A DNA stretch of 5,477 bases, from the NCBI GenBank assembly GCA_946408305.1, contig CAMJRQ010000093.1, forward strand, positions 1 to 5,477, given 5' to 3'. Position 1 is the first letter of the stretch. Every line of letters begins with the position of its first letter. Source of the DNA: an uncultured Prevotellaceae bacterium. GTDB lineage: Bacteria > Bacteroidota > Bacteroidia > Bacteroidales > Bacteroidaceae. Below the pieces are notes generated by a model, which was not told the DNA's origin, made no database searches, and saw only the letters and a list, made by a program, of their open reading frames with translations. A program made the translations under genes and the position numbers. Positions 1-4,969 of the stretch are shown piece by piece.

Positions 1-1211
1 GGCCCATGAGCAGCATGGACGAGAACCGCTTCCTGCGCGGCGCAGCCCTCACCGTGGCGCTGGGACAGGAGGTGGAACTCTCGGCCTTCGTCTCGCACCG
101 AAAGGTGGACGCCACGCTCAACGACGAGGGCCAGGTGCAGACACTGCTCGCCACGGGCTACCACCGCACCGCCTCGGAAATCGGCAGCCGCCGCAGCGTG
201 GCCTCCACCCAGGCCGGCGGCAACCTGACCTGGCGACACGGCGGATGGCATGCCGGAGCCACGGGCTACTGGCAGCACTTCTCGCGTCCGCTCAACCCAG
301 GCGAGGCAACCTATCGGCGCATCTATCCGCAGGGCTCCACGTTCGGCACGATGGGCCTCCACTATGGCTACACGCGCTACCGCCTCACGCTGGCTGGCGA
401 GACGGCCATGAGCACCCCCCGACGAGGGCTGGGCACGCTCCACCGCCTCTCCTGGGCCGTGAACCACCGCTACACGCTCAGCCTCCTGCAGCGCTACTAT
501 GGCTGCCACTACTATTCCTTCCTCGGAACAGCCTTTGCCGAGAACGCGCGGGCTCAGAACGAGAACGGCCTCCTGCTCCACCTGCGGGCCGAGCCGTGGG
601 ACCGCTGGCAGGCCACGGCCTATCTGGATTTCTTCCACAACGCCTGGCCGCGCTACCGCATGACGCACAGCAGCTCGGGGCAGGAACTGATGGCGCAGCT
701 GGCCTACCAGCCCGACGGCGTGAACACCGTCTCCGTAAGGTATCAGTTGAAACGCAAGGAACAGGCCGACCGCATGGAGCCTCACCACCGCCTGAAGGTG
801 CAGTGGAGTTGCGAGCCAAACGAGAAACTGAGGCTACAAACCACCGCCGTGCTCCACCGCGTGCTGGGACAGACGGGACGTGGCCTCCAGGAAACCGTCC
901 GCTTCAGTCCGCTGCCCGAGCGGTTGGCACTGAGCCTGACGGGGGCCTACTTCCACACGAGCGACTTCCTGAGCCGCATCTATTTCTACGTGCCGGCGCT
1001 CTACAGCTCGATGGTGCCGGGCACCTTCTTCGGGCAGGGGCTGCACGGAGCCGTGACGGCACGCCTAACGAGCCGCAACGGCCGATGGATGGCCGAGGGG
1101 CGCTATGCACTCCTGCGCTATCTCGACCGCGACGAGCAGTCGAGCGGGCTGCAAGCGATTTCCAGCCCGTGGCGCAATGACCTCTCCTTCCAGGTGAGGC
1201 TGCGTTTCTGA
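1..1211 (+). CDS. Outer-membrane beta-barrel protein, C-terminal part (5' end outside window)
   Basis: The reading frame is open from the left edge and ends at TGA 1209-1211, so the gene starts upstream. The ATG at 6 is an internal methionine, because the protein there is already in mid-barrel sequence. About 401 residues are visible. They alternate polar and aromatic residues in the manner of antiparallel beta strands (for example stretches around HYGYTRYRLTLAGE and RWQATAYLDFF) and end in ...SFQVRLRF. A terminal Phe after alternating residues is the usual outer-membrane insertion signature. The visible strands resemble, from memory, the C-terminal barrel of Bacteroidales proteins that carry an N-terminal helix-hairpin-helix domain, but that N-terminus is outside the window, so this subfamily call is tentative. 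The gene converges on msrA with only 24 bp between the stop codons, and I see no hairpin terminator there. I am confident it is a barrel; its function is unknown. Confidence 0.75.
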   Translation, partial: PMSSMDENRFLRGAALTVALGQEVELSAFVSHRKVDATLNDEGQVQTLLATGYHRTASEIGSRRSVASTQAGGNLTWRHGGWHAGATGYWQHFSRPLNPGEATYRRIYPQGSTFGTMGLHYGYTRYRLTLAGETAMSTPRRGLGTLHRLSWAVNHRYTLSLLQRYYGCHYYSFLGTAFAENARAQNENGLLLHLRAEPWDRWQATAYLDFFHNAWPRYRMTHSSSGQELMAQLAYQPDGVNTVSVRYQLKRKEQADRMEPHHRLKVQWSCEPNEKLRLQTTAVLHRVLGQTGRGLQETVRFSPLPERLALSLTGAYFHTSDFLSRIYFYVPALYSSMVPGTFFGQGLHGAVTARLTSRNGRWMAEGRYALLRYLDRDEQSSGLQAISSPWRNDLSFQVRLRF

Positions 1212-1235: not shown

Positions 1236-1754
1236 TCAGTCGGTCTCGGGCTTGGCCTCGCGAGCCTGGCGGAAGAGGTCGAGCGGCAGGTGGCAATAGC
1301 CCTCGGGGTTCTTGTCGAGATAGTCCTGATGATACTCCTCGGCTCCGTAGAAATTCCGAAGCGGCTCGCGCTCCACGACCAGCGGACGGTCGTATCGGGC
1401 TTGCTCGCAGGCAAAGACCTCGTCGATGAGCGGGCGGTCGGCGGCGTCGGTGTAGTAGATGCCCGTGCGATACTGCGTGCCCTCGTCGTGGCCCTGGCGG
1501 TTCAGGCTGAGCGGGTCGATGGCGCGGAAGTACATCTGCAGCAGGAAGCGGAGCCCCACGCGCTGCGGGTCGTAGACGATGCGCACGGTCTCGGCAAAGC
1601 CCGTCTGGTCCGTGCAGACGTCTTTATACGTGGGCCGTTCGGTGTGCCCGTTGGCATAGCCCACCTCGGTCTCCACCACTCCGCCGATTTGCTTGAAATA
1701 GTGCTCCGTGCCCCAGAAGCATCCGCCGGCCAGAAAGATTTCCTTCGTCTGCAT
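1236..1754 (-). CDS. msrA: Peptide-methionine (S)-S-oxide reductase MsrA
   Basis: MsrA reduces the S epimer of methionine sulfoxide in free or protein-bound methionine, repairing oxidative damage. The 172-aa protein opens with the family signature GGCFWGTEHYF; Cys12 is the catalytic cysteine. Other expected residues are Tyr43 and Glu55 in the PTYKDVCTDQTGFAE stretch, then Asp90 and Tyr95 in LNRQGHDEGTQYRTGIYY. Near the C-terminus is AEEYHQDYLDKNPEGYCHLPL, where Cys154 could act as a resolving cysteine. The usual His of the GHAE motif is Phe here (GFAE). No signal peptide is visible, so it is probably cytoplasmic, and there is no fused MsrB domain although MsrA-MsrB fusions are common in related bacteria. 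The ATG at 1754 lies 5 bp after the TAG stop of the peroxidase-nitroreductase gene and has no promoter of its own that I can see, so the two are probably co-transcribed from the promoter near 2929. Confidence 0.96.
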   Translation of the reverse strand: MQTKEIFLAGGCFWGTEHYFKQIGGVVETEVGYANGHTERPTYKDVCTDQTGFAETVRIVYDPQRVGLRFLLQMYFRAIDPLSLNRQGHDEGTQYRTGIYYTDAADRPLIDEVFACEQARYDRPLVVEREPLRNFYGAEEYHQDYLDKNPEGYCHLPLDLFRQAREAKPETD

Positions 1755-1759
1755 GGCGG

Positions 1760-2896
1760 CTACTTTATGAATTTCACCTTAGCCTCGTCGCGCGGTCGTG
1801 CCTCAGGCTGCTCGTCGGGATAGCCCACGGCAATGACGAGCGTGAGCTGGTAGCCCTCGGGGATGTCGAGGCGGTCGAGGAAGAACTTCGCCTCGGGGTG
1901 CGTGTTCAGGAAACGGACGGGGCCTCCCAGGCAGCATGTGCCCAGGCCCATCGACTGTGCGGCCAGGAGGATGTTCTCCGTGAGCAGACCGGCATCGAGC
2001 TGTCCGGCTCCGTCGGCCGGCGAGCAGACGCAGATGATGTTCGGCGCATTGCGGAACATGTTCTTGAAGTTGGGGTCGCGCTTCACCTGCTCGGGGTTGG
2101 CCTTCTTGTAGACGTCGTTAATCTGGCTGATGAGGGCGGTGTCCTCCACCACGCGCAGGGCCCAGGGCTGGCGGTTGAGTCCGCTGGGCGCATTGATGCC
2201 GCAGCGAGTCAGCAACTCCAGCTTGGCGTGCTCCACGGGCTGGTCCTTGTATTGACGGATGGAGCGGCGCTGCATGATGGAGCTCAGCACGGGGTTGAGC
2301 TCGGCCTGGATGTCGGCCTCGATGGTGCTGATGGGCACGGTGGGCTCGTAGCGCTTCAGGACGCGGCCGTCGCGGCTGACGAGAAACTTGGTGAAGTTCC
2401 ATTTGATGTCGGGCTTCTTGTCGTATTCGGGGTCCTGCTTGCGCAGCATCTCGTCGAGCAGCTTGCCCATGCGGTCGGCGGTGTCGAAGCCCTCGAAGCC
2501 TTTCTGCTGCTTCAGATAGGCAAAGAGCGGGTGCTCGCCCGGGCCGTTGACCTCTATCTTGTCGAACTGGGGGAAGTGGATGTCGAACTTCGAGGTGCAG
2601 AACTGGTGTATCTCCTCGATGGAGCCCGGTGCCTGCTCGCCGAACTGGTTGCAGGGGAAGTCGAGAATCTCGAGTCCCTGGTCGTGGTATCTCCCGTAGA
2701 GCGCCTCGAGTTCCTCATACTGGGGCGTGAAGCCGCAGCGCGTGGCGGTGTTGACGATGAGCAGCACCTTCTCGCGATACTGGTCGAGGGCTACTTCCTC
2801 GCCGGCATCGTTCTTCACTTTGAAATCATAGATGCTCTGGGCCCCGGGCGCCACAGCACAGGCTGCCATGAGGCAGCAAAGAAGCAAATGTTTCAT
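1760..2896 (-). CDS. Exported glutathione peroxidase-nitroreductase fusion protein
   Basis: One uninterrupted 378-aa frame carries two enzymes. Residues 1-20 look like a signal peptide (MKH, a hydrophobic core, then PGAQS); Cys13 in LMAAC is a weak lipobox, so it could be a lipoprotein. Residues about 22-200 are a glutathione peroxidase-family domain. Peroxidatic Cys54 is in TATRCGFTPQYE (codon TGC, not selenocysteine), FPCNQFGEQ contains Gln88, and Trp166-Asn167 in KWNFTKFLV complete the catalytic tetrad. Cys100 sits where thioredoxin-dependent members keep the resolving cysteine, so thioredoxin rather than glutathione is the likely reductant. Residues about 205-378 are an FMN nitroreductase-family domain: RRSIRQY (phosphate-binding arginines), NAPSGLNRQPW and GLGTCCLGG. 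An in-frame ATG at 2275 (Met208) begins the nitroreductase part, so a separate short product is possible. The start at 2896 is preceded by AGGAG (2899-2903) only 2 bp away, and the promoter box at 2929-2936 fits it. A start at Met10 (2869) would remove much of the signal peptide. Confidence 0.9.
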   Translation of the reverse strand: MKHLLLCCLMAACAVAPGAQSIYDFKVKNDAGEEVALDQYREKVLLIVNTATRCGFTPQYEELEALYGRYHDQGLEILDFPCNQFGEQAPGSIEEIHQFCTSKFDIHFPQFDKIEVNGPGEHPLFAYLKQQKGFEGFDTADRMGKLLDEMLRKQDPEYDKKPDIKWNFTKFLVSRDGRVLKRYEPTVPISTIEADIQAELNPVLSSIMQRRSIRQYKDQPVEHAKLELLTRCGINAPSGLNRQPWALRVVEDTALISQINDVYKKANPEQVKRDPNFKNMFRNAPNIICVCSPADGAGQLDAGLLTENILLAAQSMGLGTCCLGGPVRFLNTHPEAKFFLDRLDIPEGYQLTLVIAVGYPDEQPEARPRDEAKVKFIK

Positions 2897-2928: not shown

Positions 2929-2936
2929 CAAAGGTA
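2929..2936 (-). promoter_or_regulatory. Bacteroidetes -7 box for the peroxidase-nitroreductase/msrA unit
   Basis: On the - strand this reads TACCTTTG, a full match to the Bacteroidetes consensus TAnnTTTG. It implies a start of transcription near 2922 and a leader of about 26 nt before the ATG at 2896. The leader is A-rich. No good -33 TTTG element is visible about 20 bp upstream, where the bases overlap the opposing promoter, which suggests a weak or activator-dependent promoter. Confidence 0.65.
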
Positions 2937-2957: not shown

Positions 2958-2965
2958 TAACTTTG
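2958..2965 (+). promoter_or_regulatory. Bacteroidetes -7 box for the hemerythrin-LuxR regulator
   Basis: TAACTTTG matches TAnnTTTG and lies 20 bp before the ATG at 2986, giving a short leader of roughly 14 nt if transcription begins near 2972. No clear -33 TTTG is present; the expected place (around 2935) falls on the opposing -7 box. The short leader leaves open that translation begins at Met11 (3016) instead. Confidence 0.6.
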
Positions 2966-2985: not shown

Positions 2986-3957
2986 ATGACTGAGAAATAT
3001 CACAAGAACGACCCCATGAGCGATGTCATCAGCGATGACTACCGTATGTTACAGATGCTCAACCGCTTCGGCATCACGCTGGGCTTCGGCGACAAGAGCG
3101 TGGCCGAGACGTGTCGCTCGGCCGGGGTGGACGTGCCGACGTTCCTGGCCGTGGTGAACTATGTGAAGGACCGCACGTATTCCCACATCTCCGAACTGGC
3201 CGACGAGGTGAACCTGCCCTCGATGGTGCGCTATCTGCGCAACAGCCACCAATACTTCGTCGATTACCGCCTGCCCTACATCCGCCGGCAGCTCATCGAG
3301 GCCATCGACGTCTCGGCCGGCAACCGCATCGCGCTGCTCATCCTGCGCTTCTACGACGAGTTTGCCAACGAGGTGAGCCGCCACATGGAATACGAGAACC
3401 AGCATGTGCACCCCTACGTCGACAGCCTCCTGCAGGGCCGCCTGCCTGGCGAATCGTTTGCCCAGCTGGCCAACCGCCACGAGGACAACCACGCCTGCAT
3501 CGAGAAGAGCATCGCCGAGCTGAAGAACATCATCATCAAATACCTGCCCAGCAACAGCAACGCACAGCTGCTGAACGACGTCCTCATGGACATCTACATG
3601 ACCGAGGAGGACCTGCAGATGCACTGCCGGCTCGAGGACACGCTCTTTGCCGAGTGTGTGCGCCGGCTCGAGGAGGAGGTGCGCGAGCGGGGAGCCGACA
3701 CAGCCACACAGGCTGCCGACGAGACGAGCCCTGCCAACGAGGGAGCCGACCTGAGCGAGCGCGAGAAGGAGATTATCGTGCAGGTGGTGCGCGGGCTGAG
3801 CAACAAGGCCATTGCCGACGAGCTCTGCATCAGCGTGAACACCGTCATGACGCACCGCCGCAACATAAGCCGCAAGCTGCAGATTCACAGCCCCGCCGGC
3901 CTCACCATCTATGCCATCGTCAACGGCCTGGTAAACCTGGACGACGTGACGCTCTGA
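2986..3957 (+). CDS. Hemerythrin/RIC-like di-iron domain fused to LuxR-type HTH regulator
   Basis: This 323-aa protein has three parts. Residues about 19-60 resemble the ScdA_N/DUF542 leader of iron-sulfur repair (RIC) proteins, but the usual CCGG is replaced (RFGITLGFGDKSV), so the cysteine pair is missing. Residues about 80-232 form a hemerythrin-like four-helix bundle. His88, His133, Glu137, His165, His213 and Glu217 match the six iron ligands of E. coli YtfE (His84, His129, Glu133, His160, His204, Glu208) in order and nearly in spacing, so a bound di-iron centre is likely. After an acidic, Ala/Thr-rich linker, residues about 255-320 are a LuxR/GerE helix-turn-helix (LSEREKEIIVQVVRGLSNKAIA, then ISVNTVMTHRRNISRKL). 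There is no receiver domain or membrane segment. I infer a cytoplasmic transcription factor that senses oxygen, nitric oxide, peroxide or iron through the di-iron site. It is divergent from the peroxidase/msrA unit, a plausible target. Start at 2986 or 3016. Confidence 0.88.
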   Translation: MTEKYHKNDPMSDVISDDYRMLQMLNRFGITLGFGDKSVAETCRSAGVDVPTFLAVVNYVKDRTYSHISELADEVNLPSMVRYLRNSHQYFVDYRLPYIRRQLIEAIDVSAGNRIALLILRFYDEFANEVSRHMEYENQHVHPYVDSLLQGRLPGESFAQLANRHEDNHACIEKSIAELKNIIIKYLPSNSNAQLLNDVLMDIYMTEEDLQMHCRLEDTLFAECVRRLEEEVRERGADTATQAADETSPANEGADLSEREKEIIVQVVRGLSNKAIADELCISVNTVMTHRRNISRKLQIHSPAGLTIYAIVNGLVNLDDVTL

Positions 3958-3974: not shown

Positions 3975-4913
3975 TCAATACGCTCGTCCGATGCTTTGGC
4001 CGAACTCGCGGCTGATGTAGTTCTCGGTGGTGCGGCAGGCCTCGCCGGCGAAGCGGCAGGCCACGTCGATGAGCCGCTTCCAGGCGCCTTGTCCCAGCCG
4101 GGGCAGGGCGCTTTGCGTTATCCCCTCCCATATCAGGGCGCAGGAGAAGCCCGCGTTGAAGTTGTCGCCGGCCCCCACCGTGCTCTTCACGTCGGCCACG
4201 GGCGGCACGGCGAAGTCGAACGTCCCCTGGGGCGTGCACACCGTCACGCCTCCGGCCCCGGCGGTGCAGATGAAGACCGGGCAGTGGCGGCTGATGTGTT
4301 CCTTATATATATGGCGCGCGTCGCGCGAGCCATACATCACCTCGAAGTCGTCGGCACTGCCGCGCACCACCGAGCTCAGGCCGAAGTTCTCCACGATGGT
4401 GGGCATGAGAGCCTCGAGCTCGTGGCGATGACTCTGGCGGAAGTTCAGGTCGTAATAGACGATTGCCCCGGCCGAGCGGGCCCGCTGCAGCATCTCGGCC
4501 ACGAGCGGGCGCATGCCCTTGCACGAGGCGTAGTAGGAACCGAAGAGCAGCACGTCATCGGCCTCGAGCGGGGGCAGCGTCCATCCCTCGCCAGCCTGTG
4601 GCGGGTCCTTGTAGAAGACGTAGCTGGCGTCGCCCCGCTCGTCGAGGAAAGCCAGGCTCAGGGCGCTCCGCTCGTCGTCTCGCACGCGGAAGTAGCGGGT
4701 GTCCACGCCGTTCTCCTGCAGGAAACCGACGGTCTGCTCGCCCACGCGGTCGGCCCCCACGGAGCCCACGAACGAGCAGGCCACGCCGGCCCGCCCCACG
4801 CTGATGATGCTGTTGAAACTGCTGCCGCCCGGCACGGCAGCCACGGGCTGGTTGCCCCGGAAGAGGATGTCGAGGATGGTCTCGCCCATCCCCACTACTT
4901 TGCGTTCGCTCAT
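3975..4913 (-). CDS. PfkB/ribokinase-family sugar kinase
   Basis: The 312-aa product is a typical length for the family that phosphorylates sugars or nucleosides with ATP. Visible marks are VVGMGETILDILF at the N-terminus, the first PfkB signature GGSSFNSIISVGRAGV (29-44) followed by FVGSVGADRVGEQ, YYDLNFR (153-159), and the second signature VKSTVGAGDNFNAGF (242-256), in which Asp250 is the catalytic base and GAGD forms the anion hole. Substrate cannot be read from the sequence; fructokinase-like or ribokinase-like activity is the best guess. I chose ATG 4913 over the upstream in-frame TTG at 4940, because that TTG lies inside the -7 promoter box and so could hardly be within the message. The gene converges on the hemerythrin-LuxR gene with 17 bp between stops and no obvious terminator. 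It appears to be a single-gene transcript, unrelated to the stress genes. Confidence 0.92.
   Translation of the reverse strand: MSERKVVGMGETILDILFRGNQPVAAVPGGSSFNSIISVGRAGVACSFVGSVGADRVGEQTVGFLQENGVDTRYFRVRDDERSALSLAFLDERGDASYVFYKDPPQAGEGWTLPPLEADDVLLFGSYYASCKGMRPLVAEMLQRARSAGAIVYYDLNFRQSHRHELEALMPTIVENFGLSSVVRGSADDFEVMYGSRDARHIYKEHISRHCPVFICTAGAGGVTVCTPQGTFDFAVPPVADVKSTVGAGDNFNAGFSCALIWEGITQSALPRLGQGAWKRLIDVACRFAGEACRTTENYISREFGQSIGRAY
4310..4334. repeat. Intragenic near-perfect palindrome in the sugar kinase gene
   Basis: Bases 4310-4320 pair with 4324-4334 in 10 of 11 positions (one G/A mismatch, 4316 with 4328) around a 3-base TCG centre. The arms are very GC-rich (GGCGCGCG against CGCGCGAGCC). 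It encodes residues about 194-202 of the kinase, between the two PfkB signatures. It may simply reflect Arg/Ala codons in GC-rich DNA, but it would form a stable hairpin in the mRNA. Confidence 0.6.
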
Positions 4914-4937
4914 CGTTCTTGTCTGTTTTGCGTGCTG

Positions 4938-4969
4938 CAAAGATAGGATAAATTCTCAAGAAAAGGAAA
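4938..4969 (-). promoter_or_regulatory. Promoter of the sugar kinase gene
   Basis: On the - strand TATCTTTG (4945-4938) matches the Bacteroidetes -7 consensus, and TTTC (4969-4966) sits 20 bp further upstream as a three-out-of-four match to the -33 TTTG. Transcription should begin near 4931, leaving an A-rich leader of about 17 nt before the ATG at 4913. This is the most complete promoter in the window. Confidence 0.7.

What the first reader, a model, noticed from the sequence alone, without database searches (positions are those of the whole stretch)
2986..3957. Di-iron (RIC/YtfE-like) sensor domain wired to a LuxR DNA-binding domain
The six expected di-iron ligands are all present with near YtfE spacing: His88, His133, Glu137, His165, His213 and Glu217. 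A LuxR HTH follows directly and there is no receiver domain. RIC proteins repair iron-sulfur clusters; attaching this fold to a DNA-binding domain would turn a repair or NO-reactive centre into a transcriptional switch. The ligand set is read from the sequence; the sensing role is inference.
Basis: partly seen in the sequence, partly recalled or inferred. Interest (0 to 1): 0.72.

Follow-up and report, generated by a model that had tools for sequence, protein, structure and literature searches.

The report
Di-iron RIC-type domain fused to LuxR regulator
This bacterial protein joins an iron-binding fold related to an iron-sulfur repair protein to a DNA-binding domain, and many of its relatives sit beside iron-uptake-type genes, so it is probably a switch that lets the cell sense iron or its redox state directly.

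Summary
ORF 2986-3957 (+) encodes 323 aa: a RIC-like module (ScdA_N-like part without its cysteine pair, plus a hemerythrin-type bundle), a linker and a LuxR/GerE domain, with no receiver. One of the six named ligands is wrong: the helix-C ligand is His169 (YtfE His160), not His165. His165 lies one turn earlier; there the non-fused relatives have Phe and this protein's clade has nearly always His or Tyr, so it may be a fifth ligand. The protein is a fused form of the two-gene hemerythrin-CdhR regulators of Bacteroidales; a fused form was noted in print for Prevotella intermedia in 2023. In 20 of 20 fetched split loci the RIC-like gene abuts a gene for a degenerate receiver plus LuxR domain; in the fusions the RIC-like domain replaces that receiver, with at least two changes of state on the tree. 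Of 59 fused loci with more than 3 kb upstream, 41 hold at least one gene and 30 all three of a porin-imelysin-di-haem-oxidoreductase (iron-uptake type) operon. Best reading: a one-component iron/redox-responsive regulator of iron acquisition rather than an NO-repair switch. Metal binding, signal and targets are untested.

The parts
2986..3957 (+). CDS, 323 aa: RIC-like di-iron module fused to LuxR/GerE DNA-binding domain (CdhR-type fused regulator)
   Evidence: ORF; Pfam and NCBIfam; homologues over full length
3001..3171 (+). ScdA_N-like N-terminal part (about residues 6-62); GFG where RIC proteins have Cys-Cys; conserved Cys43
   Evidence: phmmer alignment to ScdA 9j47/9r7j; TIGR03652 match from residue 13; motif and column counts
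3223..3651 (+). Hemerythrin (HHE) four-helix bundle, residues 80-222, of RIC type
3247..3249 (+). His88, predicted ligand (YtfE His84)
   Evidence: 96 of 96 fused and 17 of 17 split rows; spacing
3382..3384 (+). His133, predicted ligand (YtfE His129)
   Evidence: 96 of 96 and 17 of 17; aligned
3394..3396 (+). Glu137, predicted bridging ligand (YtfE Glu133)
   Evidence: 96 of 96 and 17 of 17; aligned
3478..3480 (+).
3490..3492 (+). His169, predicted helix-C ligand (YtfE His160)
   Evidence: 120 of 120 close homologues; 92 of 96 fused and 17 of 17 split rows; profile alignment to YtfE
3622..3624 (+). His213, predicted ligand (YtfE His204); Cys214 next to it
   Evidence: 96 of 96 and 17 of 17
3634..3636 (+). 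Glu217, predicted bridging ligand (YtfE Glu208)
   Evidence: 96 of 96 and 17 of 17
3637..3750 (+). Extension of helix D beyond the ligands (helix modelled to residue 245) and low-confidence linker
   Evidence: AlphaFold2 model 2, helix 193-245, pLDDT under 50 at 242-253; model 1 ends this helix at 234
3751..3915 (+). LuxR/GerE helix-turn-helix domain, residues 256-310
   Evidence: PF00196; structural matches VraR/LiaR/NarL
2958..2965 (+). TAnnTTTG promoter-like element of the regulator gene (the Bacteroidales -7 consensus is recalled, not from a call)
   Evidence: pattern match; same element recovered upstream of relatives
2929..2936 (-). TAnnTTTG promoter-like element facing the divergent GPx-nitroreductase gene
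   Evidence: pattern match

Best explanation
The gene encodes a one-component transcription regulator of the hemerythrin-CdhR type. Its input is a RIC-type di-iron site (His88, His133, Glu137, His169, His213, Glu217, possibly also His165) and its output is a LuxR-type DNA-binding domain carried after the extended fourth helix. In related genomes the input is a separate RIC-like protein encoded with, and probably docking on, a LuxR protein with a degenerate receiver; here the input domain takes the receiver's place. Occupancy or redox state of the two-iron site most likely changes dimerisation or release of the LuxR domain and so sets transcription of iron-acquisition genes (probably active when the site is empty or altered under iron limitation). 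Shown here: domains, fold, ligand conservation, adjacency, more than one change between split and fused, receiver replacement, recurrent neighbourhood with an iron-uptake-type operon. Inferred: that iron is bound, the signal and its sign, dimerisation, and the targets.
For: Fold and ligands. Homologues are abundant: 7,536 of the 8,000 scored candidates had E <= 0.001, and the 120 listed cover 97-100% of the query, 118 of them with both Pfam domains precomputed. Split form: RIC-like and LuxR genes are neighbours on one strand in 20 of 20 fetched loci, in 14 with overlapping frames (mechanical first-ATG starts). The LuxR partner aligns with VraR along its length, but its phospho-Asp column is Asn in 18 of 20 (Asp in L118 and L120) and the second acidic residue of the pair is lost in 20 of 20. 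The tree needs 3 label changes, at least 2 on strongly supported branches. Iron context, 59 fused loci with more than 3 kb upstream: porin in 37 (34 immediately divergent), imelysin in 37, di-haem oxidoreductase in 36, all three in 30, at least one in 41; 3 of 20 split loci hold the operon or its visible part, two of them near-copies; FeoAB in 7 of 80. Imelysin-DUF1111 operons are described as iron uptake (PMC3143127, passages). Published: the split operon is induced by iron depletion, 16-20-fold in B. thetaiotaomicron and about 7-fold in P. gingivalis, and CdhR regulates hmuYR (PMC10434189, passages). Precedent: plant BRUTUS hemerythrin domains bind iron dynamically and are redox-active (PMC12022348, abstract).
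Against: The window's own neighbours are not iron-uptake genes: the divergent gene is a glutathione peroxidase-nitroreductase, followed by msrA, which points as much to peroxide stress. 18 of the 59 loci hold none of porin, imelysin or di-haem oxidoreductase. The loci are from related genomes and are not independent; cluster names rest on one Pfam-tested member each, and the first porin of split locus L116 had no Pfam match. [quoted passage not shown] Two of the 20 partner receivers keep an Asp. No operator was found; motif search returned the promoter element. Induction by iron depletion shows that the gene is regulated by iron, not that its protein senses iron.
Confidence: 0.5

Rival explanations
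1. Reactive-species sensor: the di-iron site reacts with NO, O2 or H2O2, and the change of state drives the LuxR domain to control peroxide/NO defence, such as the divergent GPx-nitroreductase and MsrA genes in the window.
For: RIC fold and ligands; the divergent genes in the window are GPx-nitroreductase and MsrA and the closest genome locus L001 also has MsrA divergent; YtfE binds NO (PMC9268430, passages); cdhR rose 5- to 7-fold in a P. gingivalis PG_0686 mutant and is said to fall under microaerophilic conditions (PMC10101095, passages).
Against: Only 1 of 80 genome loci (L001) keeps the MsrA neighbour and none showed GPx or nitroreductase, within loci that are often cut short; the recurrent neighbours are iron-uptake type; the ScdA_N cysteine pair is missing.
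Confidence: 0.27
2. Bifunctional or moonlighting repair protein: the module still donates iron or repairs Fe-S clusters, and the LuxR domain only localises or autoregulates it.
For: No match over the RIC cut-off was found in any of 14 genomes tested, so this is a main RIC-like protein there; TIGR03652 matches 16 of 16 split RIC-like members.
Against: All TIGR03652 scores lie far under the cut-off (maximum 55.9 of 204.7 bits); the N-terminal cysteine pair is replaced; steady coupling to a LuxR domain in both split and fused forms is not expected of a repair enzyme.
Confidence: 0.13
3. Structural, metal-free module: the bundle only dimerises the LuxR domain, and regulation is by expression level.
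For: PMC10434189 states CdhR has not been shown to bind iron; I saw no report of metal binding for any member in the passages read.
Against: Five ligands are invariant in 96 of 96 fused and 17 of 17 split rows and His169 is kept in 92 of 96 and 17 of 17, while the bundle half falls to 33-62% identity in the 45 least similar fused rows; a scaffold would hardly hold all of them.
Confidence: 0.1

Closest known systems
Split hemerythrin-CdhR operon of Bacteroidales (PG1236-PG1237; BT0519-BT0520) and the fused P. intermedia PIN17_RS10465 (PMC10434189, passages)
   Same: Hemerythrin-type protein plus LuxR-type regulator; fused form described there for P. intermedia; iron-depletion-induced in P. gingivalis and B. 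thetaiotaomicron
   Different: In the fusion the degenerate receiver is gone, and this protein's clade has nearly always His/Tyr four residues before the helix-C ligand where split relatives have Phe.
RIC proteins YtfE / ScdA / DnrN (TIGR03652)
   Same: Two-part layout (ScdA_N-like plus bundle), RIC structures as the best fold matches, 4 His + 2 Glu ligands by alignment
   Different: No Cys-Cys in the N-terminal part (GFG type instead), 5 residues more between Glu137 and the helix-C ligand, extra helix-C His/Tyr, C-terminal LuxR domain, scores far below the family cut-off
Plant BRUTUS/BTSL iron-sensing hemerythrin domains (PMC12022348, abstract); animal FBXL5 is recalled
   Same: Hemerythrin-type di-iron sites proposed as iron sensors controlling iron uptake
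   Different: Output is an E3 ubiquitin ligase, not DNA binding; not homologous systems
Vibrio cholerae Bhr-DGC (as cited in PMC10101095)
   Same: Hemerythrin domain as input of a bacterial signalling protein
   Different: Bacterial hemerythrin with diguanylate cyclase output
Mycobacterium kansasii HLP (PMC8913304, passages)
   Same: 4 His, 2 Glu and a Tyr ligand; the Tyr165 members here might resemble this
   Different: NO peroxidase, monomer with a five-helix core, no DNA-binding domain mentioned in the passages seen; Tyr ligation here is unproven

Membership tests
RIC (FeS_repair_RIC, TIGR03652) | Score over the curated cut-off of 204.7 bits | tested here: not met
   42.4 bits, E 6.5e-11, residues 13-220
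RIC (FeS_repair_RIC, TIGR03652) | RIC-type four-helix bundle fold | tested here: met
RIC (FeS_repair_RIC, TIGR03652) | Ligands equivalent to YtfE H84, H129, E133, H160, H204, E208 | tested here: met
   His88, His133, Glu137, His169, His213, Glu217 by alignment, spacing and conservation; geometry not measured
RIC (FeS_repair_RIC, TIGR03652) | ScdA_N domain with Cys-Cys (YtfE C30 C31) | tested here: not met
   GFG-type motif instead; CC within the first 60 residues in 1 of 109 fused and split relatives; wild-type ScdA 9r7j has CC at the aligned place
RIC (FeS_repair_RIC, TIGR03652) | Fe-S repair / NO reactivity | not testable with these tools
   needs purified protein
Hemerythrin-like superfamily (PF01814) | Score over Pfam gathering cut-off | tested here: met
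   38.9 bits against 25.3
Hemerythrin-like superfamily (PF01814) | Classical 5-His set with HxxxH on helix C and O2 binding | tested here: inconclusive
   His165-xxx-His169 gives HxxxH in one modelled helix 158-186 (broken before 166), but position 165 is Tyr in 73 of 120 homologues; ligation and O2 binding untested
LuxR/GerE DNA-binding regulators (PF00196) | GerE domain over cut-off | tested here: met
   59.8 bits against 23.5; fold match to VraR/LiaR/NarL domains
Two-component response regulator | Receiver domain with phospho-acceptor Asp | tested here: not met
   No receiver in the window protein; 18 of 20 split partners have Asn at the phospho-Asp column, 2 have Asp
Hemerythrin-CdhR regulators of Bacteroidales | RIC-like hemerythrin plus CdhR-type LuxR domain, split or fused | tested here: met
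   Both halves align to split pairs: 37-49% identity for the RIC half, 57-73% for the LuxR half
Hemerythrin-CdhR regulators of Bacteroidales | Direct sequence match to PG1236-37, BT0519-20 or PIN17_RS10465 | not tested
   Those named proteins were not retrieved; a flavodoxin gene next to the split pair in L113 resembles the order BT0515-BT0520 given in PMC10434189
Hemerythrin-CdhR regulators of Bacteroidales | Control of heme/iron uptake genes | not testable with these tools
   Only neighbourhood evidence

The most novel reading that the evidence does not exclude
A bacterial one-component iron/redox sensor in which a di-iron centre sits in the DNA-binding protein itself: a RIC-type repair domain without the cysteine pair has displaced a degenerate receiver domain and, in this clade, gained a fifth helix-C ligand (His165, or Tyr in relatives), turning an open 4-His repair site into a sensor-tuned 5-His or 4-His/1-Tyr site that directly gates iron-uptake transcription.
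Probability: 0.25. Interest if true: 0.78.

Novelty: new member of a known kind. Interest (0 to 1): 0.5.

Why it matters
How Bacteroidales couple iron status to heme and iron uptake is open; the 2023 comparison (PMC10434189) says the mechanism of CdhR is unclear and that it has not been shown to bind iron. The fused form puts the suspected sensor and the DNA-binding domain on one 323-residue chain, which makes the question directly testable. The His/Tyr/Phe series at residue 165 is a natural experiment on how a di-iron repair site could become a sensor.

Tried and rejected
Operator search: enriched 8-mers in 72 upstream regions and Gibbs sampling on 70 returned the TAnnTTTG promoter element. 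A TTTTGATGATTTT element near -99 appears in 19 of 73 regions with up to 2 mismatches (shuffle mean 1.4), but the 9 exact copies sit in close relatives and the window has none; not claimed as an operator.

Conserved partnership with GPx-nitroreductase or MsrA: not general; MsrA recurs in 1 of 80 loci, GPx and nitroreductase in none (many loci are shorter than 6 kb on a side).

His165 as the RIC helix-C ligand: rejected. The first AlphaFold2 model broke helix C just before residue 166; the second, with diverse sequences and higher pLDDT, has one helix 158-186, so the setting of His165 depends on the model.

Direct distance check of the residues: not possible, no coordinates were supplied. Foldseek alone gave no match with E <= 0.001; the structural claim rests on VIA-align Z and sequence profiles. 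Paper searches for hemerythrin, LuxR and Porphyromonas (0 papers), hemerythrin, LuxR family and Prevotella (0 papers), and broader ones; these cover open-licence PMC only. The CdhR paper of Chawla et al. 2010 was not held and is known only through citing papers.

Rows dropped or miscounted: the tree used 60 rows (window, 39 of the 95 fused loci, 20 split); L081-L083 repeat L001, L059 and L060 and were left out there but are counted. The target was called in 75 of 80 loci. The counts of the residue four before the helix-C His were partly mis-anchored (and favoured a His by construction); I repeated them with a strict anchor and use those. There P0111, L069 and L100 gave no anchor, and 4 more of the 12 distant fusions (L084, L085, L089, L093) gave no His at the expected place, so the helix-C ligand is unsure in those.

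Full report
OBSERVATION. The window carries one clear regulator gene at 2986-3957 (+), 323 aa. Pfam finds Hemerythrin at 80-222 and GerE at 256-310, both above cut-off, and lists no receiver. NCBIfam's RIC model matches 13-220 at 42.4 bits, far below its 204.7-bit cut-off. Relatives are common: 7,536 of 8,000 scored candidate proteins match with E <= 0.001; the 120 listed cover 97-100% of the query, and 118 of them carry both Pfam domains. This is a real, selected architecture, not chance.

THE LIGANDS. In YtfE, His84 and His204 bind Fe1, His129 and His160 bind Fe2, and Glu133 and Glu208 bridge (PMC9268430, passages). The profile of 16 split relatives aligns their helix-C histidine with YtfE His160 (the residue before it is the Glu159 that is Leu in 7bhb), and the 50-sequence alignment puts window His169 in that column. 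Spacing from this His to the next is 44 in both proteins. Conservation agrees: in 96 fused rows (window plus 95 loci, 3 of them repeats) and 17 split rows, His88, His133, Glu137, His213 and Glu217 are invariant; His169 is His in 92 of 96 (Arg 3, Asp 1) and 17 of 17; column 165 is His 68, Tyr 14, gap 11, Gln 2, other 1 of 96 and a gap in 17 of 17. Among 120 close proteins (window included), 165 is Tyr in 73 and His in 47, while 169 is His in 120. Counted without an alignment, the residue four before the helix-C His is Phe in 17 of 17 split proteins and 6 of the 7 distant fusions that could be anchored (of 12), but His 63, Tyr 14, Gln 2 in 79 of the 80 genome loci of this clade, and Tyr 73, His 46 in 119 of the 120 listed proteins. 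So His165 is a clade-specific addition on the ligand-bearing helix, probably near the metal, but not the RIC ligand. PMC8913304 says Tyr ligation is seen only in mycobacterial hemerythrin-like proteins (passages), so Tyr165 members would be of interest if that Tyr binds iron; this is not shown.

WHAT DIFFERS FROM RIC. The N-terminal part aligns with ScdA_N, but the Cys-Cys of RIC proteins is replaced by a Gly-Phe-Gly-type motif (LGFG in 76 of 92 fused loci and 17 of 17 split; CC within the first 60 residues in 1 of 109). Cys43 is kept in 96 of 96 and 17 of 17 rows.

SPLIT AND FUSED FORMS. In 295 Bacteroidales genomes, 13 of the listed matches span both domains, while many genomes match as separate RIC-like (about 4-240) and LuxR (about 242-322) pieces; the list was cut, so these are lower bounds. 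In 296 Bacteroidota genomes 2 listed matches span both domains (list also cut). I fetched 20 split loci, chosen from the better-scoring RIC-only rows and not all of them: the two genes are neighbours on one strand in 20 of 20, with overlapping frames in 14 by mechanical starts, and in reversed order in one (L132). The LuxR partner's first 130 residues are not recognised by Pfam as a receiver in 3 of 3 tested but the partner aligns with VraR along its length. Its phospho-Asp column is Asn in 18 of 20 and Asp in 2 (L118, L120); of the acidic pair the first is Glu/Asp in 20 of 20 and the second is lost in 20 of 20. The fused proteins lack this domain, so the RIC-like domain stands in its place. 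In a 60-row tree the fused state needs 3 changes, at least 2 on strongly supported branches, with a fused trio (L087, L091, L092) nested among split proteins. Fusion or fission therefore happened more than once, the usual sign of proteins that work together.

NEIGHBOURS. In the window the divergent gene is a glutathione peroxidase-nitroreductase, then msrA; pfkB converges from the other side. That is not general: MsrA recurs in 1 of 80 loci. The general upstream partner is an operon of porin, imelysin (PF09375), di-haem oxidoreductase (PF06537) and a second porin (PF07396), named from one Pfam-tested member per cluster. Of 59 loci with the target called and more than 3 kb upstream, 37 have the first porin (34 as the immediate divergent gene), 37 the imelysin, 36 the oxidoreductase, 30 all three; 41 have at least one and 18 none. 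FeoAB lies near in 7 of 80. Among the 20 split loci, L116 has the operon divergently, and L124 and L125 (near-copies) have it or its visible part upstream on the same strand. Imelysin-DUF1111 operons are described as iron uptake (PMC3143127, passages). L113 has a divergent flavodoxin gene.

LITERATURE. PMC10434189 (passages only) reports the operon PG1236-PG1237 (CdhR) and BT0519-BT0520, its fusion in P. intermedia, induction under iron depletion (6.9-7.3-fold for the P. gingivalis pair, 16-20-fold for the B. [quoted passage not shown] The present protein is another fused member. PMC5329018 (passages) cites CdhR as suppressing mfa1 and luxS; PMC10101095 (passages) reports cdhR up in a PG_0686 mutant and cites its fall under microaerophilic conditions.

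MECHANISM. The most likely reading is a one-component iron/redox-responsive regulator of iron acquisition (0.5). A reactive-species sensor is the main rival (0.27), favoured by the window's own GPx/MsrA neighbours. A repair protein with DNA tethering (0.13) and a metal-free scaffold (0.1) are less likely. In 0 of 14 genomes tested did any match exceed the RIC cut-off, so a residual repair role is not excluded. Iron binding, the signal, its sign and the targets remain untested.

VERDICT. Real, well read in outline, one ligand wrong, function better linked to iron than to NO. The kind is known in outline, but its biochemistry is not.

Recounting changed the overlap count (14, not 13), the residue-165 counts (one search replaces part) and the description of the partner receiver (2 of 20 keep Asp). 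None of these required a change of odds.

Noticed in passing
1760-2896 (-): A single 378-aa ORF joins a glutathione peroxidase domain (22-129) to a nitroreductase domain (207-359), with a signal-like N-terminus (impression); divergent from the regulator across 89 bp.
   Followed up: partly
1236-1754 (-): MsrA (methionine sulfoxide reductase) directly downstream of the GPx-nitroreductase gene on the same strand.
   Followed up: partly
3975-4940 (-): pfkB-family sugar kinase converging on the regulator; its cluster is found near the regulator in 25 of 80 genome loci.
   Followed up: partly
6-1211 (+): 401-aa ORF ending in Phe with no Pfam or NCBIfam match up to E 1; looks like the C-terminal part of an outer-membrane barrel (impression from sequence).
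   Followed up: no
3112-3114 and 3625-3627 (+): Cys43 is kept in all 113 rows and Cys214, next to ligand His213, in 88 of 96 fused and 8 of 17 split rows; possible redox thiols.
   Followed up: partly
L013-L025, about -99 from the regulator start: TTTTGATGATTTT element, with a related inverted copy about 40 bp downstream in some loci; absent from the window.
   Followed up: partly
L132 (G136): Split pair in reversed order (LuxR gene first), on a long branch of the tree.
   Followed up: no
L118 and L120: Two split CdhR-type partners keep an Asp at the phospho-acceptor column while 18 of 20 have Asn.
   Followed up: no
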